Shown here in pieces: positions 461 to 63,497 of a stretch of DNA of 64,000 nucleotides. This stretch comes from Prevotella fusca JCM 17724 (GTDB taxonomy: Bacteria; Bacteroidota; Bacteroidia; Bacteroidales; Bacteroidaceae): positions 640,501 through 704,500 of the forward strand of contig NZ_CP012074.1 in NCBI RefSeq assembly GCF_001262015.1. Reading direction: 5' to 3'. The notes beneath the pieces are model-generated. The model had not been told where the DNA came from. It made no database searches and was given only the letters and a program-made list of their open reading frames with translations. The translations under genes and the position numbers were made by a program. Positions within the stretch are counted from its first letter, which is position 1; each line of letters starts with the position of its first letter.

Positions 461-570
461 AGTAGTGCAAGAAAAGGTGCTTAATTGGACTTCAAAAGGG
501 CGTCAGTTAGACCTCAAAAGGGCATCTATTGCAAGCCAATTGGGCGTCTTTTCAAAGCCAAAAGACCATG
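461..570 (+). repeat. 22-bp-period array, AAAGGGCG family, copy 1
   Basis: Units of exactly 22 bases start near 483, 505, 527 and 549, with a diverged unit before them. Units share a TCAAAAGGGCGTC-like half. The 40 bases before the array (CAGTAAATC...TTATAA...GTGCA) are also conserved before the copy at 54848. There are no spacers, so this is not a CRISPR array. Confidence 0.75.
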
Positions 571-835
571 TGTTATTTTCTACAATTGATTTTATTATTA
601 CAAAAGTAAGTGCTTTTCTCCATTTTTCATTATGAACTCCCAGTATTGGTATTGTAAGATATTCCGATAATCAGTTTGGGTTAAAATATCATTATAAGCT
701 CTGTACCGGTTACTATCGAACGTTAGTAATAGAGCTGTCAAACCTCTCTTACATGAAATAAGATAGCTGTATAGATACTAATCCATGGTCAAAAGCCTTT
801 TGAGAGGTAATCGGCACACTATCAATGCGTTGTCC

Positions 836-1951
836 TTATGGTTTCTTTACAGTAATGTTCCGTTTCAGACCTTCAAATTTTACACGTTTGACAGCTGACC
901 CCTTGAATAACCGACGATAATCTTCAACTGTTAGATTATGCCACTTTTCTTTACTCATATTGAGCAGTTCAGGCTTCGGCTGCAGAGCTGGCTCGGTATT
1001 GGGTGTGGCAAAACGGTTCCATGGGCAGGCTGTCTGGCAGCGGTCACAGCCATAGATGGTGTCGCCCATGGCGGTCTTGGCTTCTGCAGACAGTTCTCCA
1101 CGATTCTCTATCAACTGATAAGACAGACAGCGTTCTGCATGAAAATCTTCACCGGGAATAATCGCTCGGGTAGGGCAGGCGTCAATACAACGGTGGCAAC
1201 TTCCGCAGCGGTTGGCCATCGGTTCATCATACACATCAACTTCAAACGGCAGGAAAATCTCCCCCAAGAAGAACATTGAACCGGCATGAGGGATAATAAG
1301 CTGATGATTACGTCCTATCCAACCAATTCCAGCTTTCTGTGCCCAGTAGCGTTCAAGAACGGGAGCCGTATCGCAGAAACATCCCCACCCCCTCTCTCCT
1401 CGAGGAGAGAGGGGAACTTTCTTACCACATTCTTTGATATTCGTCTCGTTATCTTTCGTTCTTGTCTCCCTGTTCAAAGGCTGATTTTCCTCTGTTTCTT
1501 GGAAGGAATGGAACTTAGCAGCTATCTTTTCTGCCAACTCTCTCATCTTCACTTTCATCAAATCATGGTAATCCAGTCCGAGGGCATAGGCTGCAATCTG
1601 GTATTCCCCTTCGGGCAACTGTTGTGCAGGGGCATAATTAAGAGCGAGGGATACAATGCTTCGCACACCTGGGACAAGAAGACGAGGGTCAAGGCGTTTC
1701 TCCAGATAGTTAGCCATGTATGCCATAGATGCTTCTTCACCATTCTCCAACCATTTACGATATTTCTGCGCTACGGCTTCGTCAACAGGTTCAGCCTTGG
1801 CTATACCGCATGCGAAAAATCCAAGAGAATGTGCTAAGGATTTGATAACCGATGAGTTACCAAGTCCATAACTATCTCTGGGGGTAGGCAATTTGGCTTG
1901 TTCAACAGGTGACATAAGCGGTGAAAGAAAAAACAACATAAATCCTTTCAA
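836..1951 (-). CDS. queG: Epoxyqueuosine reductase QueG
   Basis: QueG reduces epoxyqueuosine to queuosine in the wobble base of GUN-anticodon tRNAs, using cobalamin and two [4Fe-4S] clusters in the cytoplasm. The N-terminal DUF1730-type region carries LGFFACGIA near residue 43. The CDTAPVLERYWA segment near 193 holds the expected catalytic Asp. CGSCHRCIDACP near 249 and CDRCQTACP near 302 are the two ferredoxin-type cluster motifs. Residues 148-190 are a hydrophilic insertion with a perfect DNA palindrome in it, absent from the usual family layout. The first about 30 residues also look extended, so the true start could lie downstream. The gene follows a deacetylase gene on the same strand after about 100 bases. 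Confidence 0.93.
   Translation of the reverse strand: MKGFMLFFLSPLMSPVEQAKLPTPRDSYGLGNSSVIKSLAHSLGFFACGIAKAEPVDEAVAQKYRKWLENGEEASMAYMANYLEKRLDPRLLVPGVRSIVSLALNYAPAQQLPEGEYQIAAYALGLDYHDLMKVKMRELAEKIAAKFHSFQETEENQPLNRETRTKDNETNIKECGKKVPLSPRGERGWGCFCDTAPVLERYWAQKAGIGWIGRNHQLIIPHAGSMFFLGEIFLPFEVDVYDEPMANRCGSCHRCIDACPTRAIIPGEDFHAERCLSYQLIENRGELSAEAKTAMGDTIYGCDRCQTACPWNRFATPNTEPALQPKPELLNMSKEKWHNLTVEDYRRLFKGSAVKRVKFEGLKRNITVKKP
1389..1414. repeat. Perfect 26-bp palindrome inside queG
   Basis: CCCCTCTCTCCTC is followed directly by its exact complement. It is translated on the minus strand as part of the PLSPRGERGWG segment of QueG. Similar CCCCTCTCC...GGAGGGG palindromes occur inside topB and intergenically at 19554-19581, which suggests a dispersed element that inserts in frame. 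Confidence 0.75.
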
Positions 1952-2054
1952 GAAGAAAGGACGTTAGAGTAATGATGAATAATACTGAGCAATAGCAGCT
2001 AACATGAATGATAATACTATCTGTCTTGAGGATGGGGTAAGGTGGAGTTAAGTT

Positions 2055-2690
2055 TTAAAGATACGTCCCGGCTGGGTCATCGGGGAAAACTTTGAACGCA
2101 TACCCCTGTTCCTTGAGCCATTGTAATGATTCGGGGAGGGCAGTGCGGAGCTTGTCAATACTTTTGAGAGAATCATGGAAAGTGATGATAGAACCGTTGC
2201 GAGTATATCGTTTAACATTGTTCACGACATCTTCTGCTGTCAGCCACTTGGAGTAATCGCGTGTAACGAGATCCCACATTACAACACGATAGTTCTGCTT
2301 TACCCACCAGTAAACTGTATGACGCAGCCATCCATGTGGCGGACGGAAGTAAGGACTGTGGAGTAGGCCATCAGCCTTAGTCACGTCAACGGCATAGGTC
2401 AGTGTCCAATGCCTGAAAGAACCAAGATGATGGTAGGTGTGGTTGCCAACCTTATGACCACGACGGATGACCTCTTCGTATAGTTCCGGATGTTTCCTTA
2501 CATTGTCAGCAACCATGAAGAACATAGCCTTTGCCCCGAATTTGTCAAGTATGTCGAGGATGAGAGGGGTAGCTTCTGGTATCGGACCGTCATCGAATGT
2601 TAGATAAACAGAATGATCGTTCTTGTCCATACGCCAAAGAGCATGTGGATAGAAGAGGCGGAGCCAGCGTGCGGGTTGTTCAATTAACAT
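2055..2690 (-). CDS. Polysaccharide deacetylase (NodB domain, CE4)
   Basis: Metal-dependent carbohydrate esterase 4 fold, expected to remove N- or O-acetyl groups from a cell-wall or surface glycan. All family motifs are visible: TFDDGP at residues 31-36, HTYHH at 84-88, RPPHG at 116-120, a Trp-Asp pair near 139 and FHDS at 171-174. At 211 residues it is nearly a bare catalytic domain. No cleavable signal peptide is evident and the N-terminus is only mildly hydrophobic, so localisation is uncertain. The substrate cannot be told from sequence. It lies upstream of queG on the same strand. Confidence 0.9.
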   Translation of the reverse strand: MLIEQPARWLRLFYPHALWRMDKNDHSVYLTFDDGPIPEATPLILDILDKFGAKAMFFMVADNVRKHPELYEEVIRRGHKVGNHTYHHLGSFRHWTLTYAVDVTKADGLLHSPYFRPPHGWLRHTVYWWVKQNYRVVMWDLVTRDYSKWLTAEDVVNNVKRYTRNGSIITFHDSLKSIDKLRTALPESLQWLKEQGYAFKVFPDDPAGTYL

Positions 2691-2817
2691 ATTATATCAA
2701 ACTCCTGATCCCTCCCAACAAAGGACAGGGAACAAAGTGAATTGTTGGTTTAATACTCTATAACCTGTTCAACCGATGAGTCTGTCGGACTATGGAGACA
2801 GAAGTCAAAGGGAAGAA

Positions 2818-2866
2818 AAAAGCCGGAGAATGGCAGTCTGTTGAGGACAACCAGATTCCGGCTTTT
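2818..2866 (-). terminator. Rho-independent terminator after the DUF2723 gene
   Basis: Ten-base arms (AAAAGCCGGA and its complement) flank a loop of 29 bases. Read on the minus strand the stem is followed by a run of T. It sits about 35 bases past the stop codon of the DUF2723 gene. Confidence 0.7.
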
Positions 2867-2899
2867 AGTTATTATTTCTCTTTTAATATTTCAAGAATC

Positions 2900-5800
2900 T
2901 TAATCAAACGAACCATTCAGACTCTGGAACCTCTTGAAGAGGTTGTCAAGCTGGGCTGCATGCTTGTTAGCCCATGTGCGGTCAGTACGTTCGTAGTCGT
3001 TAACAAGATTCATCATAATCTGGAAGTGCATTTTACATGAACCTTGAGACATGTTGAAAAAGCGTGGAGAAAGGCTCATGTAGTAGTTTGCATACTGCAG
3101 AGAAATCTTCCACAATTCATCATAGAGCTGACGTGCCTTAGCCTTTTCACCCAGCAATGCGTATGCACGAGCCATGTCAGCCGAGCCACTCATATAGCTG
3201 ACAGGAACATTGTAGGCTGGTACTTCCTTCTCAACTTTCTGCAACACCTTCAATGCCTTAGCCTTCTCACCTTTCTCGATGAGGTGGAGCGCAAGGTCAG
3301 CCATCTCGCGGCGGTGCGTGTAACACATACGAGACAATGTCTCATCAATATAGAGTCCTGGCTTGCTGAGACCGCCCCACTTGAAGCGGTTCATCATTAC
3401 ATCGTATGTCTTCTCAGTATCGAAGTTACGCATATTGATGCCATTTGTATTTGTTTCACCCGCTGTTGAGAACGGAGTGATACGATTTACCAGACCTTCC
3501 TGGATGAAGTTCTCGCCTAAGTTCATGAAGTTATCTGAACCAACCGTGATTGCTACATAGAGAGGGCGTGTCCAGTTGCAGTTAGCAATCATTTCAAGCA
3601 TCATCAAATCATTCTTGTACAGTGCCTGCTTTCCTGCCAAAGAGATAACCATACGGTCAGGAATAGAGTCTCCCGGACGCATCATACCACTGCGGCGGAC
3701 AGCCTCCTTGTCGATAGTCATGTAAATGGTATCGGTAGGGATGACATGAGTCTCTGCATCCTTTGAGCGTACCCAGTACTTGAGAATGTTCTTCAATTCA
3801 AATGGTTCGTCACCGAATTGTGCCTTTGCTGTAGCTGGATCCTGCGTGTAGAACTCACGAATCTGCTCCTTGAACTCTGGTGCTATCTGTATATATTCAT
3901 TCGTACCACTTACATAATCCAGGCGTGACCATGAGATAGGTACACTTGGTGAGTTGTAAGCAGGACGTCGCATCTGGTCAATGTACCAGTCAGTCTGCAG
4001 GTAAGAAAGGTTACAGACACGTGTATCCGTGCGTACCCCCTCAACCTCCTGGTTATACCAAAGCGGGAAGGTATCATTGTCACCATTGGTAAAGATGATC
4101 GGATTACCCTTCTGTTGTAGTGAGTTAAGGTAGTTCTGACCAAAGTCACGACAGGTGTAACGACCCGAACGGTCATGGTCATCCCATGTCTGTGATGCCA
4201 TCTGAATAGGCACAAGCAGGCAGGCAAGTGAAATGACTGATGCTGAAAGCACAGGTGCAACCTTCAGCTTACGTGCCCAGTCATAGAGTGCCAATACGCC
4301 CAATCCACACCATATTGCGTATGCGTAGAACGAACCAGCATAGGCATAATCACGCTCACGAGGCTGACTTGGAGTCTGGTTCAGATAGATAACGATTGCC
4401 AGACCTGTCATGAAGAACAGGAAGAATACCACCCAGAACTGCTGGATACCACGCTTTCCACGCCAAGCCTGCCAGAAGAGACCAAGCAGACCGAGCAATA
4501 ACGGCAGACAGTAGAATACGTTATGCCCCTTGTTAGCCTTCAAGTCATCAGGCATCAAGTTCTGGTCGCCATAGAGTGCATTGTCAATGAACGAGATACC
4601 TGTAATCCAGTTGCCATGCTCTGGCTCGCCGTTACCCTGAATATCGTTCTGACGACCTGCAAAGTTCCACATGAAGTAACGCCAATACATGAAGTTACAC
4701 TGGTAAGAAAGGAAGAACTTGATGTTTTCCCATTGTGTAGGCATCTTCACACCGTCAACATCATGACCAGTGACACCACCCATCCATTGTTCATATTGGG
4801 CAGCATGACCTGGGTCATGCATACGTGGAAAGACCATATTCTGTTCAAACACCTGTGTTGCCTTATGACGAACGAGGAAGTAAGAATCCTTCTCATCCTT
4901 GGAAGCCTTCTCCTTACGTTCATAGATTGGTGCACCTTCTTTAAACTTATAGTGCATACCATCCTCTGCTACAGCAGGCTGGCTTGAGTAAGCCTGTCCG
5001 TAGAGCAATGGGCGGTCACCATACTGGTCACGGCTCAGATAACTGCCTAAAGTAAAGATGTCCTCTGGTGAGTTCTGGTCCATCGGAGGGTTAGCCGTTG
5101 AACGGATAACGATTACTGCGTATGAAGAATAGCCGATAATCAACATCAGCATACACAGCAATGCCGTATTCTTCACACGTGAAGAGATGAGTGCCACACG
5201 CTGTTTCTTGCCCTCGCTGTTGAAAGGACGCTGCCACTGGAGCAGTACATAAACAAGGGCAAGCACGACAATACCCGTGAAGAACGCTGTCCAGCCATAG
5301 CCATAGAAAGGAATACCTATCAGTGCCAATGCTGCCAGGAACGCAATGTTCTGACGGTAAGTACTCTTGTCCTGATAGGTTTCATAGATAGCCCAGGCAA
5401 AAGAAGCGATGAGTAACGCTATATATATAATAGTACCCGTGTTGAACGGCATGCCAAGCGTATTCGTAAAGAACAGCTCGAACCATCCACCTACAGTGAT
5501 AATGCCTGGAACGACACCATAAAGAACGGCTGCTACGAGAATCACTGAAAGAAGAAGTGCAAAGAGCGAACCTTTCAGATTGGCATCTGGCACCTTCTTA
5601 TAATAATAAACCAGTACGATGGCTGGAATACAAAGGAGATTGAGCAGGTGCACTCCGATAGACAGACCCGTCATATAGGTAATCAGCACCAACCAACGGT
5701 CGGAGTGTGGCTTGTCAGCACTGTCTTCCCACTTCAAGATAAGCCAGAATACAACAGCTGTAAAGGCTGAAGAATAGGCATATACCTCACCTTCAACGGC

Positions 5801-6220: not shown

Positions 6221-6294
6221 TTATACGATTAGAATTTACAGTCTGCCAATCAGTATCAGATAAGCAGAGACATTTTATTTCGAAATAACCGGTG

Positions 6295-6302
6295 CAAAGA
6301 TA
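6295..6302 (-). promoter_or_regulatory. Bacteroidetes -7 box (TATCTTTG) for the DUF2723 gene
   Basis: TATCTTTG on the minus strand fits the Bacteroidetes TAnnTTTG element. It would give a leader of about 68 nt. Confidence 0.55.
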
Positions 6303-6547
6303 ATAATATTAATCAAAACAGCATAAAGACAAAAGAGAAATTATAATAAAACACGGGGATTTTTAGCAAGTCAATGTCTCCGAGGGGCTTTAATCTGCAT
6401 GGTTATATCTCTTGCTTTGAATCCAAAACACGCAGAAGACAGCGTTTCATATATTGAAAATACCGCTTGACTAAGTACAAATATTAAGACGGAAGACTAA
6501 CTGTTGCTGGCTGTTAACACCATAGCAGACCGTTGAAACAAAATTAT

Positions 6548-6631
6548 TTACGTGAAAAGAAATATTTATTTTCATGAAGAAAAATATTTCTTTTCACGTA
6601 AATAATTTCTTTTTTTCATGTAAATAATTTG
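6548..6631. repeat. 22-bp-period array, TTTCATGAA family, copy A
   Basis: Four AT-rich units at exactly 22 bases, each beginning TTT(A/C)(A/C/G)TGAA or TTTCA(C/T)GTAA. Because the first unit is the reverse complement of the third, bases 6541-6567 and 6582-6608 form a perfect 27-base inverted repeat with a 14-base loop. The array lies between the topB stop codon and the DUF2723 promoter, both on the minus strand. The rest of the 6221-6742 gap holds only the promoter. Confidence 0.8.
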
Positions 6632-6742
6632 CAGCAATGTGGCTTGTGTATCCATTTTTGTGAATCGTCTACAGATGGAAGAGGCATGTTTTCCTGCCTG
6701 ACAAAGCTGTTTAACAACTGGAGTACATTAAACAATGCCAGG

Positions 6743-8680: not shown

Positions 8681-8816
8681 ACTTTTCTTTAGATGGTTTC
8701 GGGTAGAGGACAGGAAGTTATGAAGTTGAAGGAGTAGGGGGTTATGCTTGTTCCTGCTCTTTTATTCTTGTTCTTCTCTTCCTCTGTTTTGTGGATTATG
8801 TTGTCTTCCACAGATG

Positions 8817-8824
8817 CAAAGGTA
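8817..8824 (-). promoter_or_regulatory. -7 box (TACCTTTG) for topB
   Basis: TAnnTTTG match on the minus strand, giving a leader of about 130 nt before topB. Confidence 0.45.
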
Positions 8825-9063: not shown

Positions 9064-9071
9064 TAACTTTG
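9064..9071 (+). promoter_or_regulatory. -7 box (TAACTTTG) for eno
   Basis: Exact TAnnTTTG match 52 bases before the eno start. A TTG-containing stretch lies about 25 bases further upstream where the -33 element is expected. Confidence 0.65.
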
Positions 9072-9120
9072 CAAGGAGAAACGAAAGATAAAATATAACT
9101 GATTTTTAATAAACATATAA

Positions 9121-10975: not shown

Positions 10976-11334
10976 CAGTGTCTTACTATATACAATATAA
11001 TGACAGTGAAGAATCTTTCTTCCCACTCCCTACCAATGTGTTGTTGCTCATCACGCATGGTATTGATGGTAAGCACCAATGGTGCTGGTGGTAAGCACGT
11101 GTGGTGTTAGTGGTAAGCACCAATGGTGTTGAGAGCCAAACACCATGCGGTATAAAGTCAACATGTAAGTAGCTTGCTGTCAGAAAAAAGTCATACTACC
11201 AAAAGTAAACAAAACATACTTGATGAGGGGACTTACTTTCTCGTGACAATACGACATTACCTGTTTGTTTGTAAGAGATTCTGCATGAGAGAGTATACAG
11301 TTTAGGTTTTATCGGACAACAATATTTCTTTATA
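10976..11334 (+). repeat. Long dispersed repeat copy 1, with GCACC 22-bp array at 11048-11157
   Basis: Five units of exactly 22 bases (starts 11048, 11070, 11092, 11114, 11136). The core is the palindrome AGCACCAATGGTGCT or a variant. The flanks are also shared with the copy at 33365-33582: AGTGTCTT(A/G)CTATAT before the array, and TTTTATCGGACA(A/G)CAATA after it. The two copies therefore share a modular layout over 220-360 bases, not just the repeats. Confidence 0.75.
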
Positions 11335-15726: not shown

Positions 15727-15818
15727 CGAAAAATAGCCAACATGAAACACTTATACTATGCAAATAAAGGTGAAAGAAGAGGAATGATGTGGGTATGTCA
15801 ATGTGTTTTCTGAATTTT

Positions 15819-15906
15819 CTTCATGAAAAAAAATATTTCTTTTCATGATAATAATTATTTCTTTTCATGACAATAATTATTTTTCTTCATGAAAAGAAAT
15901 TGTAGA
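15819..15906. repeat. 22-bp-period array, TTTCATGAA family, copy B
   Basis: Four units start at 15819, 15841, 15863 and 15885. Each opens (C/T)TTCATGA followed by an A/T-only half. The array lies between divergent DUF4230 and sdaA promoters. The rest of the 15727-16222 gap shows only the sdaA promoter and a loose inverted pair (CGGATAAG near 16056, CTTATCCG near 16122). Confidence 0.8.
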
Positions 15907-16174
15907 GCATATATCAAGTGACGCTTTTACTTCGGTATATTCTTACCTTAGATGCCAAATTATCTTTTCTTGGCAAGCATTGATTTTTATGATAGCCTGG
16001 TGTAGGAAGTATAAAAGAAAGAGTCAGGAATTCAACTAACTATCTACTGACAAAGTGCTCTTGCGGATAAGAACACTGACAGTTTACGTAATAAAAATAC
16101 GATCTTTAGATGTTCAAAAAATCTTATCCGATAATTTATGAGTTGTTTCTCTGCACCATTGCCGTTTTTTTTCG

Positions 16175-18811: not shown

Positions 18812-19312
18812 AGGCTTCTTCCGTTAAATGTGTGGATACCCATCATTATGCTTGTTTAAAAGCTGTCATTATGCATCTTTGTAGTGACCCTAACAGCATT
18901 TTTGTTCAAATATTTCAAATCGTGAAATCGAATTGATGCTCTTCTGGCTTTGAAAAGATGCCCAATTGGCTTTGAGAAGACGCCCTTTTGAGGTCTTGTT
19001 AACGCCCTTTTGAACCCTAACTAACGCCCTTTTGAAACACGGTTGTGCAAGTCTTTGATTCACTGCAGGTTACAACGTTGCTGAAACCCGTCATTTTTGT
19101 ACTTCTTTTTGAGCCTGATAGCCGCACGATTGTCAAGATATTTCAAATGCATTTCTTTCGTATCTCACAAGGAAAAGCGAACAGGCGAACAGTTGCAGAT
19201 ATAGATAAAAGGTCTATTGTCACAATGATATGGATTTAGAAATGAAGTACACTTCACTTTGAGGCTATATCCATTATATGCGTAGGCGTCGATGCATTTA
19301 ACGGAAGAACCA
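18812..19312. mobile_element. MITE-like element with 15-bp terminal inverted repeats
   Basis: A perfect 15-base pair of ends (TTCTTCCGTTAAATG at 18816-18830, complement at 19295-19309) encloses about 465 bases with no convincing gene. The right end reads outward as TGGTTCTTCCG, matching ends at 190 and 63162. The AAAGGGCG array at 18929-19038 lies within. No clean target duplication was found. Being mobile is inference. Confidence 0.45.
18929..19038 (-). repeat. 22-bp-period array, AAAGGGCG family, copy 2
   Basis: Five units of 22 bases (boundaries 18951, 18973, 18995, 19017), in minus orientation relative to copy 1. Three carry TCAAAAGGGCG and two carry CAATTGGGCATC or a relative. The leader beyond 19039 shares CAGTGAATC with copy 1's CAGTAAATC. 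Confidence 0.75.
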
Positions 19313-22854: not shown

Positions 22855-23004
22855 CCATTTTTTAATGATATAACTACTATATGGTAATAAAAAAAAGTTA
22901 AATACATGGAGGCGGAATGATATGCTTTTCTCCAGTCTGTAAACCTTTCTGAAAGTCAGTAGAGCAGTGTGACTTGCCTTTAGTCACATGCTTTGTCGAA
23001 TTAT

Positions 23005-23092
23005 TTTCATGAAGAGAAATATTTTCTTTCACGAGTATAACCATTTCCCTTCATGAAAAGAATTATTTCTCGTCATGAAAGTATTTTATTAG
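23005..23092. repeat. 22-bp-period array, TTTCATGAA family, copy C
   Basis: Four units start at 23005, 23027, 23049 and 23071, all opening with (T/C)(T/G)TCA(T/C)GA. The array lies in the divergent fur/nrfH region, between the two promoters. Nothing else is visible in that 370-base gap. Confidence 0.8.
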
Positions 23093-33364: not shown

Positions 33365-33582
33365 AGTGTCTTGCTATATTTATAATGACAATAATGAAAC
33401 TCTCTTTCTATATTATGCCTATGTGTTGTTGCCCAGCACATGTGGTGCTGTTGGCAAACACCAGTGGTGTTGAGTGCTAAACACCTTGCAATATATTGTT
33501 AGAACAGAATCGTTCTATCAAAAGCAAATATCGGGATAGTATGCTGTTTAAGTTTTATCGGACAGCAATAACTCTTTGCATA
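33365..33582 (+). repeat. Long dispersed repeat copy 2, with GCACC 22-bp array at 33433-33498
   Basis: Three units of 22 bases (33433, 33455, 33477), with cores AGCACATGTGGTGCT and AACACCAGTGGTGTT. Both flanks match the copy at 10976-11334, but the inner spacing differs by about 140 bases. It lies between glk and the tsaC promoter, in the same orientation as both genes. Confidence 0.75.
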
Positions 33583-41760: not shown

Positions 41761-42139
41761 GAATAAGTATTGAGTCAGTTTTACAATAACAGTGTTTTAA
41801 TTCAATCTAATAAACTATCATTTATCGTTGTCCGGCAGTCTCGTACACTCTGTCCGAAGCCTTCGTACAATATGTCCGAAAGTGTCGGAAACATTAAAAA
41901 GAGTTCTTAGGGGGAAGTGTGATAATTATCCTTTATAGCCTCGATATTTTCAATTATTATTTTATAGATAATAATAAGGATAGTTAGACTTATCTTACAT
42001 TGTTTCTTTTTCACAATATATAAGTGAGAAAACTTATGATAGTTTTGTTGGTACGTCTTATGGTTATACATCTAAAAATATTTGGAGTAGCCTAAAAGAG
42101 TACTAGTTTGTTTCTACTGAATATTATTACTATAATTTT
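41761..42139. other. Intergenic region with 22-bp array
   Basis: 380 bases between the DUF6078-like gene and wzx, carrying the TCCGA array and otherwise very AT-rich. No gene or clear promoter was seen. Confidence 0.5.
41830..41895. repeat. 22-bp-period array, GTCCGA family
   Basis: Three units of 22 bases start at 41830, 41852 and 41874, each beginning GTCCG. Cores are palindromic or nearly so: CGAAGCCTTCG in the second unit and TCCGAAAGTGTCGGA in the third. The sequence is unrelated to the other array families in the window but has the same period. Confidence 0.7.
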
Positions 42140-54595: not shown

Positions 54596-55165
54596 AATTA
54601 AGTTTCTGAACCTCATTTGTGTTATGTCTTGCGCAGAGTGGTGTGAGAGAGTTGTAAGATAATTGTATTGATGGGTGTCTTTTCTATGTGAAATTTAGAA
54701 AAGACTTCTTGCATTGAAAGTTTTGAAGTATCTTTACATAACTTGTTGCCGGTTTTGCTTGGAGGGCAGAGGAAAGAAAGGATAATTCGCGCATTTGTAA
54801 CTGTCAGGTAATCTGGCGGTTATAATGTTGTGCAGAAAAAGGTGCTTAATAGGACTTCAATTAAGCACCAGTTGGGCTTCAATTAAGCACCTATTGGACG
54901 TCAATTTGTGCTTAGTTGAGAGGCAACTTACCATTGAGACTTTTTCTTGGTGAATTATTTTGACAAAAGAGGTAGATGTGGATGACTGACTTTGAGCGAT
55001 TGGCAATGGCTATCAGCCTGGTCGCTGTGACAGTCATGGCATAAGAGGTCGGTAGAATTATAGAATCGGTAAATGGTTGCTCCCCAATTATTTGTTACTG
55101 CCTTAGGGCAATGGGACTGAAAAGCGTATTCCAGAAGAAGAATTTAGAAACTTGAATATTAATAT
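54596..55165. other. Large gap inside the polysaccharide locus
   Basis: 570 bases without a gene, between the acyltransferase and a fucosyltransferase-like gene. It holds the third AAAGGGCG-family array with its conserved leader. Downstream of that I see nothing interpretable. It is the largest break in the locus and may mark a module boundary. Confidence 0.6.
54797..54935 (+). repeat. 22-bp-period array, TTAAGCACC variant, copy 3, with leader
   Basis: Units of 22 bases start at 54848, 54870 and 54892, with a diverged fourth at 54914. The order of unit beginnings (AATAGGACTTCAA, AGTTGGGCTTCAA, TATTGGACGTCAA) matches copy 1 at 483-548 unit for unit. The other half differs: TTAAGCACC here, AAGGGCGTC there. 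The 50-base leader before it is shared with copy 1. Confidence 0.75.
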
Positions 55166-56137: not shown

Positions 56138-56139
56138 GT

Positions 56140-57318: not shown

Positions 57319-57324
57319 TTGACT

Positions 57325-58440
57325 ATGAAATGTGATGTTATTGTAACATATTGTTGGAACCGAGTAGGTTATAACATTATTCGTAGCCTTTATGAAAAAG
57401 GATTAAAGGTTGTTGTTGGAGATACATCATCTTATAATATTTGTAGTATCTCTAAATTTAGTGTAGGAAAATTTGTTTATCGAGATTTCAAAAAAGATGA
57501 AAAAGGCTTTATTGAAGACTTGAAGAAAGCCCTTAAAGAGTATTCCCCTAAAGTCCTTATGCCTACGCATGATGAATCTTTAATTATAGCGAAACACATA
57601 GACGAGCTCCCCAAGGATGTTATATATACAATAGAATCCTATGAGAAACAGATTCAGCTGTCTGATAAGCATAAAGCAACTATTTTATCAAATTCTGTTG
57701 GTGTACCAGTTCCTCGCTTTATAGATGATATAAAACAAGCAACATATCCGATAGTCATTAAAACGAAATTTGGCAATTCTGCAAAGGGTGTGTTCTTTCC
57801 TAAAGATTATACGGAAGCTAAAAATATTTTACTTCAATACGATAAAAAAAATATCTTAATAGAGGACTTCTTTGCTGGTATAGACTATAGTGTAGATTGT
57901 GTTAGGCATGATGGGTTCTTTCAAGCATGTACTTATAGATCTTTAGTGACGAAGACAGATGGAGGAGGTACAACAACACAGAGAATCTTGGTTGAAATGC
58001 CTGAATTAGAGAGATATTCTAAACTAATTTTAGATAAAGTTAATTATAAAGGAGTTTGTGGTATAGATTTCAAGGTGAACGAAGAAACGAAGGAGGCTGT
58101 ATTTATTGAGGTTAATGCTCGATTCACAGGTGGTTTAGCAACACCAATGGCTGGTGGTTTTGATATTCCTTATATTGTATATTCTCTTTTCACTTCAGGG
58201 AAGTATGAACACAAAATCCAACCTCGTATGGGGACAAAAACTAAGTGGATACTTGGTGATATAATAACTCTTGTTGGCAAGATTCTTCGTTGTTCGTTGA
58301 CTATGAAAGAGTTCAAGCAGATAATGAGTTGGAACTTTGATGCTTTCGATGATTATAGAAAAGAAGATAAGAAAGCTATTTTGGGTGAGTTCCTCTATTA
58401 TTTTGTAAAGTTGGTAAAGAATAGAAACCTGAATCCGTAA
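57325..58440 (+). CDS. ATP-grasp domain ligase
   Basis: A 371-residue ATP-dependent carboxylate-amine ligase-type protein. The pre-ATP-grasp domain (MKCDVIVTYCWNRVGYNIIR) is followed by the ATP-binding lobe (YPIVIKTKFGNSAKGVFF, near 153). The metal/ATP site GVCGIDFKVNEETKEAVFIE and VNARFTGG (near 245-270) is complete. The start is the ATG, as the in-frame TTG 6 bases upstream is weaker. In a locus that also makes a uronic acid, it may form an amide on a sugar carboxylate or attach an amino acid. That role is inference. Confidence 0.82.
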   Translation: MKCDVIVTYCWNRVGYNIIRSLYEKGLKVVVGDTSSYNICSISKFSVGKFVYRDFKKDEKGFIEDLKKALKEYSPKVLMPTHDESLIIAKHIDELPKDVIYTIESYEKQIQLSDKHKATILSNSVGVPVPRFIDDIKQATYPIVIKTKFGNSAKGVFFPKDYTEAKNILLQYDKKNILIEDFFAGIDYSVDCVRHDGFFQACTYRSLVTKTDGGGTTTQRILVEMPELERYSKLILDKVNYKGVCGIDFKVNEETKEAVFIEVNARFTGGLATPMAGGFDIPYIVYSLFTSGKYEHKIQPRMGTKTKWILGDIITLVGKILRCSLTMKEFKQIMSWNFDAFDDYRKEDKKAILGEFLYYFVKLVKNRNLNP

Positions 58441-58449
58441 ATTAATATT

Positions 58450-59085
58450 ATGTTTTTAAAATGGTTATTTGATAAACTTGCATCTTTGTTCGGTTTGCTA
58501 TTTCTCTGTCCAGTATTATTGGTTGTAGCAATTCTAATCAAGGTGAAGATGCCTGGTCCTATTTTGTTTTGTCAAAAGCGAGTGGGACAGTATGGTAAAC
58601 TGTTTACTGTATATAAGTTTAGATCGATGACTGTCAAGGCTGAGGCTTCTGTGGCAAGTCGGGATTCTGATGCAACTTCTATTGCCTCAACGGAACAATG
58701 CCGTATAACTCCACTTGGTGAGAAACTCAGACGTTACAAGTTGGATGAGTTACCTGAACTGTGGAATGTTCTCAAGGGCGATATGAGCTTTGTTGGTCCA
58801 CGTCCGGATGTGCCTGGCTATGCCGATCAGCTGCAAGGTGAAGAAAGAGAAATTCTGAAGTTGAAGCCAGGTATTACGGGACCAGCCAGTCTGAAGTATA
58901 GAGACGAGGAGGAGCTGTTGGCTTCAGTTGATAACCCCACGCAGTATAATGATGAGGTCATCTTTCCTGACAAAGTCAGACTGAACCTCTATTACTTGAA
59001 GCATTATTCATTCATAAAGGATATTCAAATGATTATCTGTACGGTTCTCGGTAAGAAGATGGACTATGCAGGTGAAAAAATATAA
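58450..59085 (+). CDS. Initiating sugar-phosphate transferase (PglC/WcaJ-C type)
   Basis: Monotopic phosphoglycosyl transferase (PF02397) that moves a phospho-sugar from a UDP-sugar to undecaprenyl phosphate, starting repeat-unit synthesis. One re-entrant membrane helix (LASLFGLLFLCPVLLVVAIL, about residues 11-30), then QKRVGQYGKLFTVYKFRSM. The catalytic Asp-Glu pair is in YKLDELPELWNVLKGDMSFV (near 97), and GPRPDVPGY and KPGITGPA follow. At 211 residues it is the minimal PglC-like form, with an added segment near residues 65-85. It sits directly before the aminotransferase gene. Confidence 0.92.
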   Translation: MFLKWLFDKLASLFGLLFLCPVLLVVAILIKVKMPGPILFCQKRVGQYGKLFTVYKFRSMTVKAEASVASRDSDATSIASTEQCRITPLGEKLRRYKLDELPELWNVLKGDMSFVGPRPDVPGYADQLQGEEREILKLKPGITGPASLKYRDEEELLASVDNPTQYNDEVIFPDKVRLNLYYLKHYSFIKDIQMIICTVLGKKMDYAGEKI

Positions 59086-59093
59086 TTAGTAAA

Positions 59094-60455
59094 ATGGAAA
59101 GAAACCGTATTTTACTTTGTCTCGCTCACATGAGCGGTAATGAAATGAAATACATCCAAGAGGCGTTCGACACCAATTGGGTTGTACCATTGGGACCAAA
59201 TGTCAATGGCTTTGAAGATGACTTGAGACGTTTCTCAGTGTCTGTAAGTCCTTCAGATGAAAGAGGAAACTTCCTTGCAAAGGAGGCGTATCCACAAACG
59301 ATTATGCCGCATGAGGATAATCCTGATAATCTGTGGAAGGAGTCTTTACCTGGATTGGAGGATAAGCGTGTCGTGGCACTCTGTTCTGGTACGTCTGCTG
59401 TACATCTCTCTTTGGTGGCATTGGGAGTGAAGGCAGGTGACGAGGTCATCTGCCAGAGCTTCACCTTCTGCGCCAGTTCACACCCCGTAACTTACCAGGG
59501 GGCTACGCCTGTCTTTGTTGACTCAGAGCAGGAAACATGGAATATGGATCCTGTGTTGTTGGAGGAAGCTATCAAGGACAGAATTGCCAAGACTGGTAAG
59601 AAGCCAAAGGCTATCATCGTGGTTTATCTCTATGGTATGCCTGCAAAGATAAAGGAAATCCTTGCAGTGGCAGATAAGTATGATATTCCTGTGGTTGAGG
59701 ATGCAGCCGAGGGCTTAGGGTCAAGATATGCAGGACAGGTTTGCGGTACGTTCGGTGCGTATGGTGTTCTGTCATTCAATGGTAATAAGATGATTACCAC
59801 ATCAGGTGGTGGTGCGCTTGTCTGCCCTGATGAGGCTGCCCGCAACAATGTGATGTTCTATGCTACACAGGCACGTGAGGGTTATCCTTACTATCAGCAT
59901 GAGAAGATAGGCTATAACTATCGCATGAGCAATGTCTGTGCAGGTATCGGTCGTGGTCAGATGACTGTTCTCGATGAGCATATCGCCCATCACCGTCATA
60001 TTGCCCATTTGTATGAAGAGGCTTTCAGCAAGATAGAGGGTATTACTTTCCATGCCAATCCTTCACCGGAGTATGATTCCAACTTCTGGCTGAACACAAT
60101 GGTTATAGACCCTTCTGTCAAGGTAAAAGGACAGGAGAACGCCTACAAGACTACGGTGCAGGGTGCTGTAGGTGGTGCTGCTGGTGTTATTCATTCTGTA
60201 GACGATGCACATACTGATTGCGAGCCGAATGCCAATGTTGAGGCTATGCGCGTATTCCTTGACAAGGCTAACATAGAGTGTCGTCCTCTCTGGAAACCAA
60301 TGCACAAGCAGCCTTGCTATAAGGATTGTCCATCATATGTCAATGGTGTCAGTGAGAGTCTCTTTAAGGTTGGCATGTGCCTGCCAAGCGGTCCACTGGT
60401 AACAGATGATGATGTGAAGTATATTGTAGAAAAGATAAAAGAGGCAATGGCATAA
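59094..60455 (+). CDS. DegT/DnrJ/EryC1/StrS (PglE-like) aminotransferase
   Basis: PLP-dependent sugar aminotransferase that would convert a UDP-4-keto-6-deoxy-HexNAc to the 4-amino sugar, the substrate class of PglC-type transferases. CSGTSAVHLSLVALGVKAGD (near 97) binds the phosphate. VVEDAAEGLGSRY (near 198) holds the PLP-contacting Asp. The Schiff-base Lys is in GVLSFNGNKMITTSGGG (near 222). At 453 residues it is longer than PglE (about 385), with extra segments near 48-80 and 345-375. Codon use is host-like. No 4,6-dehydratase gene is in the window. A terminator follows. Confidence 0.9.
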   Translation: MERNRILLCLAHMSGNEMKYIQEAFDTNWVVPLGPNVNGFEDDLRRFSVSVSPSDERGNFLAKEAYPQTIMPHEDNPDNLWKESLPGLEDKRVVALCSGTSAVHLSLVALGVKAGDEVICQSFTFCASSHPVTYQGATPVFVDSEQETWNMDPVLLEEAIKDRIAKTGKKPKAIIVVYLYGMPAKIKEILAVADKYDIPVVEDAAEGLGSRYAGQVCGTFGAYGVLSFNGNKMITTSGGGALVCPDEAARNNVMFYATQAREGYPYYQHEKIGYNYRMSNVCAGIGRGQMTVLDEHIAHHRHIAHLYEEAFSKIEGITFHANPSPEYDSNFWLNTMVIDPSVKVKGQENAYKTTVQGAVGGAAGVIHSVDDAHTDCEPNANVEAMRVFLDKANIECRPLWKPMHKQPCYKDCPSYVNGVSESLFKVGMCLPSGPLVTDDDVKYIVEKIKEAMA

Positions 60456-60480
60456 ACAACATCTTTTTTGAACTCATATT

Positions 60481-60524
60481 AAGGGCTGACGTCGTAGATC
60501 TTATTGTCTTCGGTGCCAGCCCTT
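60481..60524 (+). terminator. Terminator hairpin of the polysaccharide locus
   Basis: Eight-base arms AAGGGCTG and its complement flank a 28-base loop with its own partial pairing. It begins 26 bases past the aminotransferase stop codon. The rest of the gap to 60768 shows nothing further. Confidence 0.55.
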
Positions 60525-60768
60525 TCTGTGTTTTCCCATAGATACTAGATTATGGCAATATCTTGTTTTGCCGAATTCAGAATCCAATATAAGAGTCATT
60601 GGGATATATGTCAGTGGATGTTGAAGTAGCGTTTTTTGTGCAGGTTTATTAAGCAATAAGATACCCTGGCGGAGTATCCATGCCATAAATAGATTCGTTT
60701 AGGTCTATGTGTCGCAAAAGTACGATAAAAAAACCGAATAGACGAAGAAAATACAAGAAAAGTAGTAT

Positions 60769-61551
60769 TTATTTTTCAAGTTTTATATTCTCATCCTCCT
60801 TGATAATCTCTTTTATAGAAACGGGGATAACAGGTGGTAATAACATTGTAGAAGTCAGTGAGTTGAGGATTGTCGATATACTTTTATGTTGTATCGTTAT
60901 ATTGTTGTTATTGGTCGTTTTGTCAGTTATTTTCCTCAAGGAGTCTTTGGGTAGTGTTACCTCATATTTTGCCCAGCAGGCAGCTGCCATCCGTTTAAGC
61001 TGGGCAAGTCTTCCCTGTACGTCTTCTCCTTGTCTAAATTGATTATATTTTTTCTCAGCATTCATGTATTGGTCATATGCAGTTTTCCAAGATTGCAGGA
61101 ACATGTGGCACAGACCTAACCGATAGTAGACGTCACCTTTCTCCCGTTCATAACATACGGTCAGCGTTTTCTCATAGTAGGGGACAGCCTCTTTGTACCG
61201 CTTCAGGTTAAAATTACTTTCTGCTGCGGTATAATAATAGACGGAACGTTCGTGTGGAGCAAGTACTTCCAGCTTCGGGATGGCATCTTCCAGATAATCT
61301 GCTGCTGCTTCATAGTCCCATTCATGATAATAGCACAGTCCGATATAGGCTTTGAAACGGTCGTTAAGTTGGTATGCCTTGTCCAGACGTTGGAAGATAA
61401 GCAGTGCCTCATGGTACTTTGCGGAAGTAAAGTACTCCAGCGCTTTTCCCAACTCTTCTGCATCCTTGCTCTTCTGTGCAGTAGCAGGAATATAGAAGTT
61501 AAGGAACAGCACAAACGTAATGATTATTCTTCCCGTTATTCTTACAGCCAT
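60769..61551 (-). CDS. Exported tetratricopeptide-repeat protein
   Basis: A 260-residue protein with a signal peptide (IIITFVLFLNFYIPATAQ). About five TPR motifs follow (EYFTSAKYHEALLIFQRLDK, GLCYYHEWDYEAAADYLEDA, AESNFNLKRYKEAVPYYEKT, GLCHMFLQSWKTAYDQYMNA). The C-terminus is low-complexity, with a run of Asn and Thr (DKTTNNNNITIQH) and a charged tail. TPR domains bind proteins, so a periplasmic scaffold role is possible. Partner unknown. It overlaps the upstream HPPK-like gene by 10 bases. Confidence 0.82.
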   Translation of the reverse strand: MAVRITGRIIITFVLFLNFYIPATAQKSKDAEELGKALEYFTSAKYHEALLIFQRLDKAYQLNDRFKAYIGLCYYHEWDYEAAADYLEDAIPKLEVLAPHERSVYYYTAAESNFNLKRYKEAVPYYEKTLTVCYEREKGDVYYRLGLCHMFLQSWKTAYDQYMNAEKKYNQFRQGEDVQGRLAQLKRMAAACWAKYEVTLPKDSLRKITDKTTNNNNITIQHKSISTILNSLTSTMLLPPVIPVSIKEIIKEDENIKLEK

Positions 61552-61868
61552 ATTATCTCCTTTACAATCTTCCCACCATATTGTGCAAGGTCAATGTCAA
61601 TCAGGACCTTTCCCTGCTGATGGTTCTCATGTGAGTCACCCATTGACTTCTCAACTTCCTTCAGGCATTGTTGCACTTGTGTAAGTGTCCATGTTGTTTC
61701 AAAAGTTCCTATACAGTTCAGAAAGTTGTCCGACTCTATCCCGATAGGTTCTGTACATTGAGCTTCAGTGAATCTGACATCCTTGAAATATTGTTTCAAC
61801 AATGCCTGTGCTTTGGAAATATTTTCCGTCTGATTGAAATTTGAACCAAGTGCAATAACCGTCTTCAT
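61542..61868 (-). CDS. Short HPPK-like protein (FolK family)
   Basis: It resembles 6-hydroxymethyl-7,8-dihydropterin pyrophosphokinase. MKTVIALGSNFNQTENISKA is the family's N-terminus and TEPIGIESDNFLNCIGTFET matches the pterin-binding region. GKVLIDIDLAQYGGK replaces the catalytic RxxDxDL signature, with D-I-D retained but the Arg changed. At 108 residues it stops about 40-50 short of normal FolK, lacking the C-terminal PHP...R segment. It could be a specialised Bacteroidales short form. Catalytic activity is doubtful. The start at 61868 follows a TAACTTTG box almost immediately. Confidence 0.7.
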   Translation of the reverse strand: MKTVIALGSNFNQTENISKAQALLKQYFKDVRFTEAQCTEPIGIESDNFLNCIGTFETTWTLTQVQQCLKEVEKSMGDSHENHQQGKVLIDIDLAQYGGKIVKEIIWL

Positions 61869-61874
61869 AGAATA

Positions 61875-61882
61875 CAAAGTTA
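61875..61882 (-). promoter_or_regulatory. -7 box (TAACTTTG), possibly leaderless start
   Basis: The box ends 6 bases before the ATG of the HPPK-like gene, which would put the transcript start at or next to the start codon. Confidence 0.5.
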
Positions 61883-61948
61883 AGCATAAGTTTTGATATG
61901 TTTGTGAGATTTTAAGACAAATAGTTTTGCATTATATAATAAAACGTG

Positions 61949-61956
61949 TATTTTTG
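61949..61956 (+). promoter_or_regulatory. -7 box (TATTTTTG) for the glucosaminidase gene
   Basis: TAnnTTTG match 29 bases before the chosen start. It excludes the in-frame start at 61946. Confidence 0.5.
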
Positions 61957-61984
61957 CAGTTATATAATCCAAAAAGAACTTTTT

Positions 61985-62938
61985 ATGCGACGATATATCT
62001 TCCTTTTTTTCTCATTCCTCTATATGTTGTCAGCCATAGCGGCTGGTCCGGCAAAATGGAATCAGGTCTATCAGGCTTATATTGACCAGTACAAGGACAT
62101 GGCTATTGAGGGTATGCTGAAGTATGGCGTGCCTGCCAGCATCACCTTGGCACAAGGTCTGTTGGAGAGCGGAGCTGGTCGTGGAAGGCTTGTCCGTCAG
62201 GGTAATAATCACTTTGGTATCAAGTGTCATGGTTGGAAAGGACGTACGATTACTCATGATGATGATGCGATAGGAGAGTGTTTCCGTGCATACGACAGTG
62301 CATTGGAGAGTTATGAAGACCACTGCAAATTCCTTCGTGATCGTCCACGTTATAGAAGTCTGTTTAGTCTGGACAGGAGTGATTATCGTGGATGGGCACA
62401 TGGACTGAAGCGTGCCGGATATGCAACTAATCCTGCATACGCACAGAGTCTGATAAATCTTATCGAGCTTTATAAACTTTATGAGTATGACAAGGCGAAG
62501 CATTATGACCGCTTCATGGCTCATCATAGTGGAGAGAACATGTCTGCCCGTGATGCTGGTAACAATCGCACAACTACTACTCAGATAGCAGGAGCGCATG
62601 CAATCCATAAATACAATGAGAACTACTATGTAGTTGTAAGGCAAGGTGATACGTTTAAGTCTTTGAGTAAGGAGTTGGATATCAGTGCTCGTAAGTTGGC
62701 TAAATATAATGAGCGTGATAAGAAAGACCGTCTTGTTGAGGGTGAGTTTATCTGGTTGAAGAAGAAACTGTCGAAGGCACCGAAGACCTTTAAGAAACGT
62801 CCATATTATGTGCGCAAGTCAGAAAGTCTGTATGATATAGCGCAGAAGTATGGTATCCGACTGAAGAGCCTTGTTAAGAAGAACGAGAAGATTGCTGAGC
62901 GTGGGCTGCAGATAGGAGATGAAGTTCGGTTATACTAA
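61985..62938 (+). CDS. Secreted glucosaminidase with two LysM domains
   Basis: A peptidoglycan hydrolase. A signal peptide (MRRYIFLFFSFLYMLSAIAA) precedes a glucosaminidase (PF01832) domain at about residues 30-170. SITLAQGLLESGAGRGRL carries the catalytic Glu, and CHGWKGRTITHDDD and CFRAYDSALESYEDHCKFL are family segments. Two LysM domains follow (YYVVVRQGDTFKSLSKELD near 214 and YYVRKSESLYDIAQKYG near 274), which bind glycan. Likely role is cell-wall remodelling. It diverges from the HPPK/TPR pair and has its own promoter. Confidence 0.93.
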   Translation: MRRYIFLFFSFLYMLSAIAAGPAKWNQVYQAYIDQYKDMAIEGMLKYGVPASITLAQGLLESGAGRGRLVRQGNNHFGIKCHGWKGRTITHDDDAIGECFRAYDSALESYEDHCKFLRDRPRYRSLFSLDRSDYRGWAHGLKRAGYATNPAYAQSLINLIELYKLYEYDKAKHYDRFMAHHSGENMSARDAGNNRTTTTQIAGAHAIHKYNENYYVVVRQGDTFKSLSKELDISARKLAKYNERDKKDRLVEGEFIWLKKKLSKAPKTFKKRPYYVRKSESLYDIAQKYGIRLKSLVKKNEKIAERGLQIGDEVRLY

Positions 62939-63155
62939 AATGTTTGGGTCAAATCAGTCATCTGATCATATTAGTATTGCCTCCTGACTTCTTTAATTTG
63001 CCTGTCGGTATCTTGTATGTCTATCTAACTTGACGTAGCCTGTTATGCCTTCGTTACAAAGACAAACAATCTCCCGGTTATCAAACAAAATCTGTTCAGG
63101 CTCTAATGATTGATTTGTATTAAACTACACCTGCAAAGAATTATCTTCACGGTAA

Positions 63156-63426
63156 TAAATATGGGTCTTCCGGAATTTGGAGTGATAATAATTAGTTATT
63201 AATAATCAACTACTTACACCATTGCTCATATATGTTAAACCCTTTATATACGGAGAATTATAATCATAATGTGCTAATTAGTAGTGCAGGAGTTACTATA
63301 ACTTATAAATTCACTTCATTTAGTCTAAATCCATTTATTAATGAGAAGGTTATGAAGAGATTTTTATCTCAAAATTTGAGTATCATTCATTGGTTATCAC
63401 TCCAAATATCGGATGAACCATAAATA
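63156..63426. mobile_element. 259-bp MITE-like element with possible 6-bp target duplication
   Basis: End sequences 63161-63188 and 63394-63421 are reverse complements at 24 of 28 positions (TTGGAGTGATAA core). TAAATA flanks both sides (63156-63161 and 63421-63426), consistent with a 6-bp target duplication of an element at 63162-63420. The outer TGGTTCATCCG matches sites near 190 and 19305. Confidence 0.6.
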
Positions 63427-63431
63427 TTTAT

Positions 63432-63497
63432 TATCGTGAAGAAAAATATTTTTCTTCATGAAAAGAAATATTTTTTTTCATGAAAATAATTTCTCTC
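63432..63497. repeat. 22-bp-period array, TTTCATGAA family, copy D
   Basis: Three units start at 63432, 63454 and 63476. All share T(C/A)(A/G)TGAA in the first half and an A/T-only second half. The array begins a few bases after the MITE-like element. Confidence 0.75.

What the first reader, a model, noticed from the sequence alone, without database searches (positions are those of the whole stretch)
461..63497. Several unrelated repeat families share one exact 22-bp period
Ten or more intergenic sites carry 3-5 contiguous units. Units align at exactly 22 bases in every case, although the families differ completely in sequence (TTTCATGAA, GCACC/GGTG, AAAGGGCG/TTAAGCACC, GTCCGA, and a weak GTTGGTAA set). 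There are no spacers and none lies in a gene. A period of about two helical turns places each unit on the same DNA face, as expected for arrays of sites bound cooperatively by a protein, or by a set of paralogous proteins each with its own core. Alternatively they arise by a shared duplication mechanism. From memory, 22-bp direct repeats have been reported in Porphyromonas gingivalis; I could not verify this.
Basis: partly seen in the sequence, partly recalled or inferred. Interest (0 to 1): 0.85.

Follow-up and report, generated by a model that had tools for sequence, protein, structure and literature searches.

The report
Protein-specific 22-bp palindrome arrays
Short palindromic DNA repeats, always 22 bases apart and often in fours, are scattered through these bacteria, and arrays of the same build sit at a fixed distance from the promoters of genes for a little-studied family of histone-like proteins that may bind them, which would give that family its first proposed DNA targets.

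Summary
In 864 kb of this two-contig, Prevotella-like genome, 101 arrays repeat at 22 bp; other periods sit near background. 96 of 101 touch no called gene. Family A arrays are palindromic and mostly have four units. The same period, with other cores, recurs in relatives.

The arrays lead to a protein family. Of 90 HU-HIG genes tested, 50 have a 22-bp array within 500 bp upstream and 5 downstream; 33 of 406 control genes have one upstream. In the HU+winged-helix subclass 24 of 27 do. The first palindrome centre lies 24-25.5 bp after the -7 box (TAnnTTTG) in 19 of 20 promoters measured with hand-listed cores. Paralogues differ in core, and three cores recur as dispersed arrays, largely in genomes that encode that or a similar paralogue. 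The window's TTTCATGAA arrays match the one at this genome's own HU-winged-helix gene.

Best reading: operator-like target arrays of HU-winged-helix paralogues. Binding and repression are inferred. Against it: one relative keeps many TCATGA arrays without the gene; only 29 of 158 dispersed arrays clearly matched a promoter array; the GCACC/GGTG, AAAGGGCG and GTCCGA families have no identified protein, and AAAGGGCG partly lies in a MITE-like element.

The parts
6528..6639 (.). family A array (TTTCATGAAA core, 22-bp period)
15801..15913 (.). family A array, four cores
22998..23092 (.). family A array between fur-like and nrfH-like genes; the same place in G156 and G170 holds a family A array that is split by an inserted MITE-like element carrying a family C array
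63411..63509 (.). family A array
11030..11147 (.). family B array (GGTG/CACC arms)
33419..33488 (.). family B array, weak and short
460..576 (.). family C array (AAAGGGCG/TTAAGCACC); inside a longer repeat, about 185-575, that matches inserted elements in G156 and G170
18918..19047 (.). family C array, reverse orientation
54836..54920 (.). family C array
41825..41892 (.). GTCCGA array, three units, weak

Best explanation
The 22-bp arrays are target arrays of the HU-HIG protein family (Pfam PF18291, HU domain fused to winged helix, Ig or glycine-rich parts), whose paralogues have diverged in the base sequence they read but kept one spacing. In the winged-helix subclass most genes have a promoter whose -7 box is followed, 24-25.5 bp on, by the first of about four palindromes spaced exactly 22 bp. 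Proposed mechanism: a dimer sits on each palindrome through its winged helices, the HU-like bodies of neighbouring dimers pack at a pitch of two helical turns and bend or coat about 88 bp, and at the gene's own promoter this blocks transcription (autorepression). Dispersed copies of the same array, from a few to (by estimate) over a hundred per genome, would be further binding sites; they are not at promoters, so they more likely serve nucleoid structure, boundaries or titration than ordinary gene control. In this genome family A (TTTCATGAA) belongs to the HU-winged-helix gene at G000:C1:1695774-1696367. Shown: the period, palindromes, promoter geometry, paralogue-specific cores, co-distribution for three families, and higher identity of family A arrays than of their flanks. 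Inferred: binding, dimer on dyad, repression, the role of dispersed arrays, and the extension to families B, C and GTCCGA.
For: Association: of 90 HU-HIG genes tested (of 195 matches in 13 genomes), 50 have a lag-22 array ending within 500 bp upstream and 5 have one downstream; at other lags 16-29 the upstream count is 0-11. Four of the 90 were the coincidences that suggested the link; without them it is 46 of 86. If the whole array must lie in the 500 bp it is 46 of 90. Controls: in 12 of the same genomes 33 of 406 called genes have an upstream array and 54 of 406 a downstream one (Fisher p 2.5e-22 for upstream); 32 of 138 if only genes with at least 250 bp of upstream gap are taken (p 1.2e-6). 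Winged-helix subclass: 24 of 27 genes have a lag-22 array (at least 26/44) in the 330 bp upstream; no other lag from 15 to 30 exceeds 2 of 27; TAnnTTTG is present in 22 of 27 against 3.7 expected from shuffles. Geometry: an unsupervised dyad scan found at least 3 dyads in 22-bp register in 17 of 27 loci and put the first unit 14 bp after the -7 box in 12 and 13 bp in 2; with hand-listed cores for 21 loci the -7-to-first-dyad distance is 24-25.5 bp in 19 of the 20 that have a -7 box. Own core per paralogue: TTTTCATGAAAA in G000, G148, G156; TTTACACGTAAA in G017, G108; ATCTACATGTAGAT in G148; TTTCATCATGATGA in G026, G003; TTTCACCATGGTGA in G003; others. Distant relatives: 4 of 5 homologues (27-35% identity) outside the genus carry 22-bp arrays upstream. 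Co-distribution: the framework with open core is abundant only in G000, G170, G156, G017 and G108 among 299 genus genomes; all but G170 are among the 11 genomes with the close HU-winged-helix gene. The L366 promoter array finds 29, 16, 8 and 1 matches in G026, G003, G232, G100 and none in the other 7 of 11 genomes. Stability: family A arrays are in 7 of 8 unbiased orthologous species-by-place pairs, the eighth holding a remnant; array identity is 87% against 71% in the 80-bp flanks, higher in 9 of 9 pairs. Protein: model with an HU-like body (pLDDT about 57-82) and a winged helix (82-92); best PDB matches are HU and IHF chains; Pfam HU-HIG E 2.2e-24.
Against: G170 has 217 hits to the family A pattern, yet none of its five listed HU-HIG genes is this paralogue (a sixth scored below the listed range) and a DNA search with the gene and its flanks returned only array matches (78 of 78; 40 of 95 candidates scored). 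So arrays persist without the gene there. Of 158 arrays compared with 48 HU-HIG upstream arrays, 80 matched none and 49 (family C) matched only L294, an array 425 bp from its gene that looks like a dispersed copy; that leaves 29. The L364 array of G148 finds only 3 places there, its own promoter included, and 9 and 6 matches in G017 and G108. 42 of the 76 HU-HIG genes outside my winged-helix list have no array upstream, and where they do it often lies upstream of the promoter, a different layout. G024 has 0 of 6. Dispersed arrays do not share the promoter geometry: -7 box beside 6 of 101, against 80 of 789 random intergenic places. In the unsupervised scan 5 of 27 loci gave other gaps (-8 three times, 0, 24; wrong register as I read them) and 8 gave none. 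L371 is counted in the 24 of 27 but shows no palindromic lattice; L363 and L374 have no array. The genes counted share ancestry, so the p-values overstate independence. Higher identity of arrays than flanks could come from gene conversion or from aligning AT-rich repeats.
Confidence: 0.68

Rival explanations
1. The arrays are non-autonomous mobile repeats (MITE- or REP-like) whose internal 22-bp minisatellite has no cellular role; nearness to HU-HIG genes is incidental or reflects shared islands.
For: Family C lies in elements with inverted ends (GGTTCTTCNGTTAAATGYGTRGA-like): the motif is within 450 bp of 24 of 54 C arrays and of 0 of 47 others, and one such element is inserted within a family A array in G156 and G170. 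Family A has uniform ends, themselves inverted repeats, and high copy number. BrickBuilt of P. gingivalis is a MITE with 23-nt internal repeats (passages).
Against: The C-type ends are absent near family A (0 of 19), family A positions are conserved between species, and neither mobility nor island sharing predicts the fixed distance from the -7 box or a different core for each paralogue. Y1 transposase (RAYT type) is absent from 9 of 13 genomes searched, G000 included. No insertion sequence sharing family A ends was sought.
Confidence: 0.16
2. The units act as RNA: tandem hairpins that terminate, stabilise or are processed from transcripts.
For: Units are palindromic; in families B and C arms seem to change in step (by eye); in HU-winged-helix genes the array lies in the presumed 5' leader.
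Against: In arrays flanked by genes of one direction, G.T and A.C mismatches are nearly equal on the coding strand (38 against 30, with 78 others, of 857 pairs), whereas RNA pairing would favour G.U. Cores such as AAATATTT would pair weakly. No Rfam family reached its gathering score in the window.
Confidence: 0.06
3. A duplication mechanism with a fixed step creates 22-bp tandems in intergenic DNA without function.
For: Arrays gain or lose whole units (G156 has 44 bp more than G000 at L049).
Against: Unrelated cores that are palindromic, usually four units in family A, arrays more conserved than flanks, and promoter geometry. Slippage would be expected to give many periods.
Confidence: 0.04
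4. The promoter arrays are operators for some other regulator that controls the HU-HIG genes, not for the HU-HIG proteins themselves.
For: Binding by HU-HIG protein is not shown; G170 keeps family A arrays without the gene.
Against: The core differs from paralogue to paralogue within one genome (for example L355 and L362 in G108, L352 and L364 in G148); a single outside regulator cannot do that, and the proteins carry a winged helix of their own.
Confidence: 0.06

Closest known systems
HU-HIG family (Pfam PF18291; NCBIfam TIGR01201 HU_rel)
   Same: The proteins beside the arrays belong to it; Pfam describes it as HU fused to wHTH, Ig or glycine-rich motif.
   Different: My paper searches listed nothing that gives this family a DNA target (listings only). 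The three winged-helix members scanned score below the TIGR01201 cut-off (41.6, 46.9, 57.6 against 68.6).
PINSR, the 188-bp repeat of Prevotella intermedia and nigrescens (PMC4755523, section 3.4 read)
   Same: Dispersed intergenic repeat, 177-184 copies, about three-quarters of its regions conserved between two strains, no terminal inverted repeats, no known function.
   Different: That section mentions no 22-bp period, palindromes or linked protein; I did not have its sequence, so whether it contains one of these arrays is untested.
BrickBuilt MITE of Porphyromonas gingivalis (PMC4596501, passages)
   Same: Intergenic dispersed element with internal tandem repeats in the same order of bacteria; resembles family C here.
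   Different: 23-nt repeats, terminal inverted repeats, leader and tail segments; family A shows only the array.
REP/BIME palindromes with RAYT transposases (recalled; PMC3733652 seen only in a search listing)
   Same: Dispersed intergenic palindromes linked to one protein gene that carries the same palindrome beside it.
   Different: No Y1 transposase found in G000; strict 22-bp spacing; the linked protein is an HU-winged-helix protein with the array downstream of its -7 box.
Autoregulatory operator arrays and plasmid iterons (recalled)
   Same: Regular tandem protein sites near the gene of the binding protein.
   Different: Iterons are direct repeats at an origin; here palindromes, many families, many dispersed copies.

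Membership tests
Autoregulatory operator array | Array overlaps or abuts the promoter of the regulator's own gene | tested here: met
   First dyad 24-25.5 bp after the -7 box in 19 of 20 HU-winged-helix loci with hand-listed cores; 13-14 bp to the first unit in 14 of 27 by the unsupervised scan
Autoregulatory operator array | The regulator binds the array and changes its own expression | not testable with these tools
   No binding or expression data
Autoregulatory operator array | Operator sequence tracks regulator paralogue | tested here: inconclusive
   For: paralogue-specific cores and the L366 array in 4 of 11 genomes. Against: G170 has family A arrays without the gene
MITE | Terminal inverted repeats shared with an insertion sequence | tested here: inconclusive
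   The family C end motif is near 24 of 54 C arrays and 0 of 47 others. Family A ends are inverted repeats of their own; no insertion sequence sharing them was sought
MITE | Recent mobility (empty sites between relatives) | tested here: inconclusive
   Family A: 7 of 8 unbiased species-by-place pairs carry the array, the eighth a remnant. C: inserted element in G156 and G170 but not in G000 at fur-nrfH
REP/BIME with RAYT | Y1-type transposase gene in the genome | tested here: not met
   PF01797 in 4 of 13 genomes; none found in G000, G156, G170, G148, G017, G108, G026, G003, G024
PINSR | 188-bp consensus sequence | not tested
   The consensus is in a figure that is not held
Structured RNA element (Rfam) | Match to a known family | tested here: not met
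   0 matches at gathering score in the window
HU-HIG protein family (for the linked gene) | PF18291 match over its cut-off | tested here: met
   86.3 bits against 26.2 for the G000 protein

The most novel reading that the evidence does not exclude
A sequence-addressed nucleoid system: a lineage-specific expansion of HU proteins fused to winged helices, each paralogue building a uniform four-dimer particle on its own 88-bp palindromic array, with up to about a hundred such particles at conserved intergenic positions per genome, and each paralogue limiting its own dose through a like array set at a fixed phase from its promoter. Protein specificity and array core then evolve together while the 22-bp pitch stays fixed, even in other Bacteroidales families.
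Probability: 0.35. Interest if true: 0.92.

Novelty: new variant of a known kind. Interest (0 to 1): 0.82.

Why it matters
HU-HIG genes are numerous in these bacteria (6-30 matches per genome in the 13 searched, canonical HU included) and my searches listed no published DNA target for them. If they read these arrays, an orphan repeat class and an orphan protein family explain each other, and exact binding sites are in hand for gel shifts, DAP-seq and structures. It would also offer a natural series of related proteins with matched recognition sites, useful for learning how winged helices change specificity while an HU body keeps spacing, and a case of HU-family proteins with real sequence addresses.

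Tried and rejected
REP/RAYT: set aside because no Y1 transposase was found in 9 of 13 genomes, G000 included. RNA hairpins: mismatch types show no G.U bias. Strand orientation of family A: an apparent all-plus pattern on contig 1 was a listing artefact; both strands match in each of the 30 loci checked. Phage origin: the family B array had no match in the phage collection. Array near a promoter as a general rule: dispersed arrays have -7 boxes at or below background. Period beyond the genus: in 80 Bacteroidetes purA loci lag 22 gave 1 cluster and lag 21 gave 11, several of them low-complexity or coding; by eye there are palindromic arrays of period 21 in Parabacteroides and Tannerella, 23 in Porphyromonas and a Bacteroides bin, 24 in one MAG. 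So 22 is not general in the phylum, and these are too few to claim a period per genus; HU-winged-helix homologues outside the genus again gave 22. Whole-array palindrome test: 41 of 101 beat all 20 column permutations, mean 0.586 against 0.501; real, but weaker than the eye suggests. Papers: 10 searches listed no description of these arrays or of HU-HIG targets; most were judged from listings, the library lacks most subscription papers, and a paper that I recall as defining HU-HIG was looked up by a recalled identifier and is not held.


Full report
WHAT WAS CHECKED. The window lies at G000:C1:640501-704500 of a 3.26-Mb genome in two contigs. A plain lag scan finds 22 (and its double 44) as the only period in the window among lags 8-59 at 28/40, and again in an 864-kb sample: 101 arrays after dropping 4 runs of N. 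96 of 101 arrays overlap no gene by my simple caller; flanks are 30 '--', 27 '+-', 23 '++', 14 '-+' (the other 7 lack a called gene on one side), against 105, 60, 75, 58 for intergenic gaps of at least 150 bp, a mild excess between convergent genes.

ANATOMY. Family A units hold a palindrome TTTCATGAAA and, 11 bp away, AAATATTT, so the array reads much the same on both strands. Of 49 rows printed (some rows are the same place twice), 41 show four cores and 8 show three, all in exact 22-bp register, and most begin near GAATTATTTTCATG and end near CATGAAAATAATTC. Family B has GGTG and CACC arms, family C has AATT every 11 bp in part of its units, and minor families have TTGGAC/GTCCAA, TTAC/GTAA and GTCCGA.

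RELATIVES. In stretches of 17 other genomes of the genus (20-100 kb each) lag 22 at 28/44 gave 2-9 arrays in 11 genomes, 1 in 5 and 0 in G209; other lags from 15 to 30 gave 0 or 1 in each. Cores differ: GGGAATCCTGTTCCC, TTACACGTAA, TTATCTAAGCTTAGATAA, AAACGTATATACGTTT and others. A pattern that keeps the family A framework but leaves the six core bases open is abundant in G000 (188), G170 (76), G156 (75), G017 (59) and G108 (56) and at 0-4 in the rest of 299 genomes; where places were listed, G017 and G108 carry ACRYGT and G000, G156, G170 carry TCATGA or close forms. So the frame stays and the core changes.

CONSERVATION. Of 30 relatives' loci chosen for a family A match, 14 could be tied by gene flanks to G000 sequence that I held. 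Eight species-by-place pairs (six G000 places) fall in stretches taken without regard to arrays: 7 have an array in G000 and the eighth has a one-unit remnant (one of the seven, L227, was judged by coordinates only). Four further pairs were to G000 loci chosen because they carry family A, one locus fell at a stretch end, and one was a second copy of the same place. G156 has 44 bp, two units, more than G000 at L049. Over 9 aligned pairs the arrays are 87% identical and the 80-bp flanks 71%, higher in all 9. At fur-nrfH the family A array of G000 is present in G156 and G170 but split by an element with inverted ends that carries a family C array. Family C is therefore at least partly mobile cargo.

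THE PROTEIN LINK. Of two candidate families tested, Y1 transposase was not found in 9 of 13 genomes, but HU-HIG (PF18291) was in all 13, with 195 matches, and four of its genes coincided with arrays already listed. I then tested 90 of these genes: 30 given as loci and 60 that I picked from its list. 50 have an array upstream and 5 downstream, against 33 and 54 of 406 control genes of 12 of the same genomes, or 32 upstream of 138 with a long upstream gap; in G000 itself the control is 46 of 534. Without the four suggestive genes it is 46 of 86. A close relative of the winged-helix protein is in 11 of 249 genomes of the genus (E 1e-20, 22 genes) and, with another paralogue as query, in 4 of 295 of the order, G000 included (E 1e-15). 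Of the 27 genes tested, 24 have a lag-22 array in 330 bp upstream; L371 among these shows no palindromic lattice, and L370, missed by the lag test, shows one by eye.

GEOMETRY. In these promoters TAnnTTTG (the Bacteroidetes -7 type, recalled) is followed by the array. An unsupervised dyad scan gave a gap of 14 bp to the first unit in 12 loci, 13 in 2, other values in 5 and none in 8 of 27. With hand-listed cores for 21 loci, 20 of which have a -7 box, the first dyad centre is at 25 bp in 15, 24 in 3, 25.5 in 1 and 45.5 in 1; in the last my core list seems to have missed the first unit. In G503, of another family, the layout is the same with TTCCACAGGTGTGGAA. Dispersed arrays show no such geometry: among the family A arrays of the sample only the gene's own (L050) and one other have a -7 box near.

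DISPERSED COPIES. The promoter array of L366 matches 29 times in G026, 16 in G003, 8 in G232, once in G100 and not in the other 7 of 11 genomes (matches count both strands, by my count 16, 9 and 4 places). The array of L364 matches 4 times in its own G148 (3 places), 9 and 6 times in G017 and G108, whose core is close, and not in the other 8. With family A and ACRYGT this gives three families dispersed mainly where the paralogue or a similar one is. In a wider match of 158 arrays to 48 HU-HIG upstream arrays, 29 matched convincingly, 49 family C arrays matched only L294, and 80 matched none. G170 is the strongest counter-example; whether it was among the 249 genomes is not shown.

STRUCTURE. 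AlphaFold2 on a 96%-identical homologue (31 sequences) gave mean pLDDT 70, a poorly modelled N-terminus, an HU-like body and a confident winged helix from about residue 138; the 18 PDB matches at E up to 0.001 are, as far as titled, HU or IHF type chains or complexes. Domain packing is not reliable (pTM 0.37).

WHAT IS INFERRED. That the protein binds the arrays, as dimers on dyads with HU bodies setting the pitch; that the promoter array represses; and that dispersed arrays have a structural rather than promoter role. For the other HU-HIG genes, 34 of 76 have arrays, often upstream of the -7 box (the split rests on my own list of 14 winged-helix genes, and a few of the 76 may also end in a helix-turn-helix), so their relation may differ. 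Families B, C and GTCCGA of the window have no identified protein.

Noticed in passing
window 185-575; L182 3584-3970; L188 15821-16219: Family C sits in a longer repeat with ends like GGTTCTTCNGTTAAATGYGTRGA; the end motif is near 24 of 54 C arrays and 0 of 47 others.
   Followed up: partly
L358, L360, L356, L357 (roughly 200-10 bp before the start codons): Some HU-winged-helix leaders hold what looks by eye like a second, different 22-bp array (AATACG..., AATGYA..., CTCCTRCATCTAAAGACAACAA), perhaps cross-regulation between paralogues.
   Followed up: no
L280 against L281 and L283: The HU-winged-helix locus of G148 is 95% identical in DNA to G000 over 2.3 kb, more than G156 is (91.5%), although PurA of G148 is more distant (91 against 95%): possible horizontal transfer.
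   Followed up: partly
G000 sample, both contigs: Family A and B arrays are mostly on the larger contig (17 of 19 and 12 of 15), family C mostly on the smaller (35 of 54).
   Followed up: no
L075, L076, L082, L085, L087, L123: Other Bacteroidales show similar short arrays with periods 21, 23 or 24.
   Followed up: partly
L301 and L307: A 141-aa HU-HIG gene in G017 and G108 also carries ACRYGT arrays upstream, the core of the winged-helix paralogue of the same genomes.
   Followed up: no
L286, L295, L296, L300, L339: A 153-155 aa HU-HIG paralogue keeps the same array, AAAAGGTAGACCTTTT, upstream in G016, G156 (twice), G148 and G026.
   Followed up: partly
L363 and L371: Two HU-winged-helix genes have an upstream region that looks replaced, without the palindromic array.
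   Followed up: no
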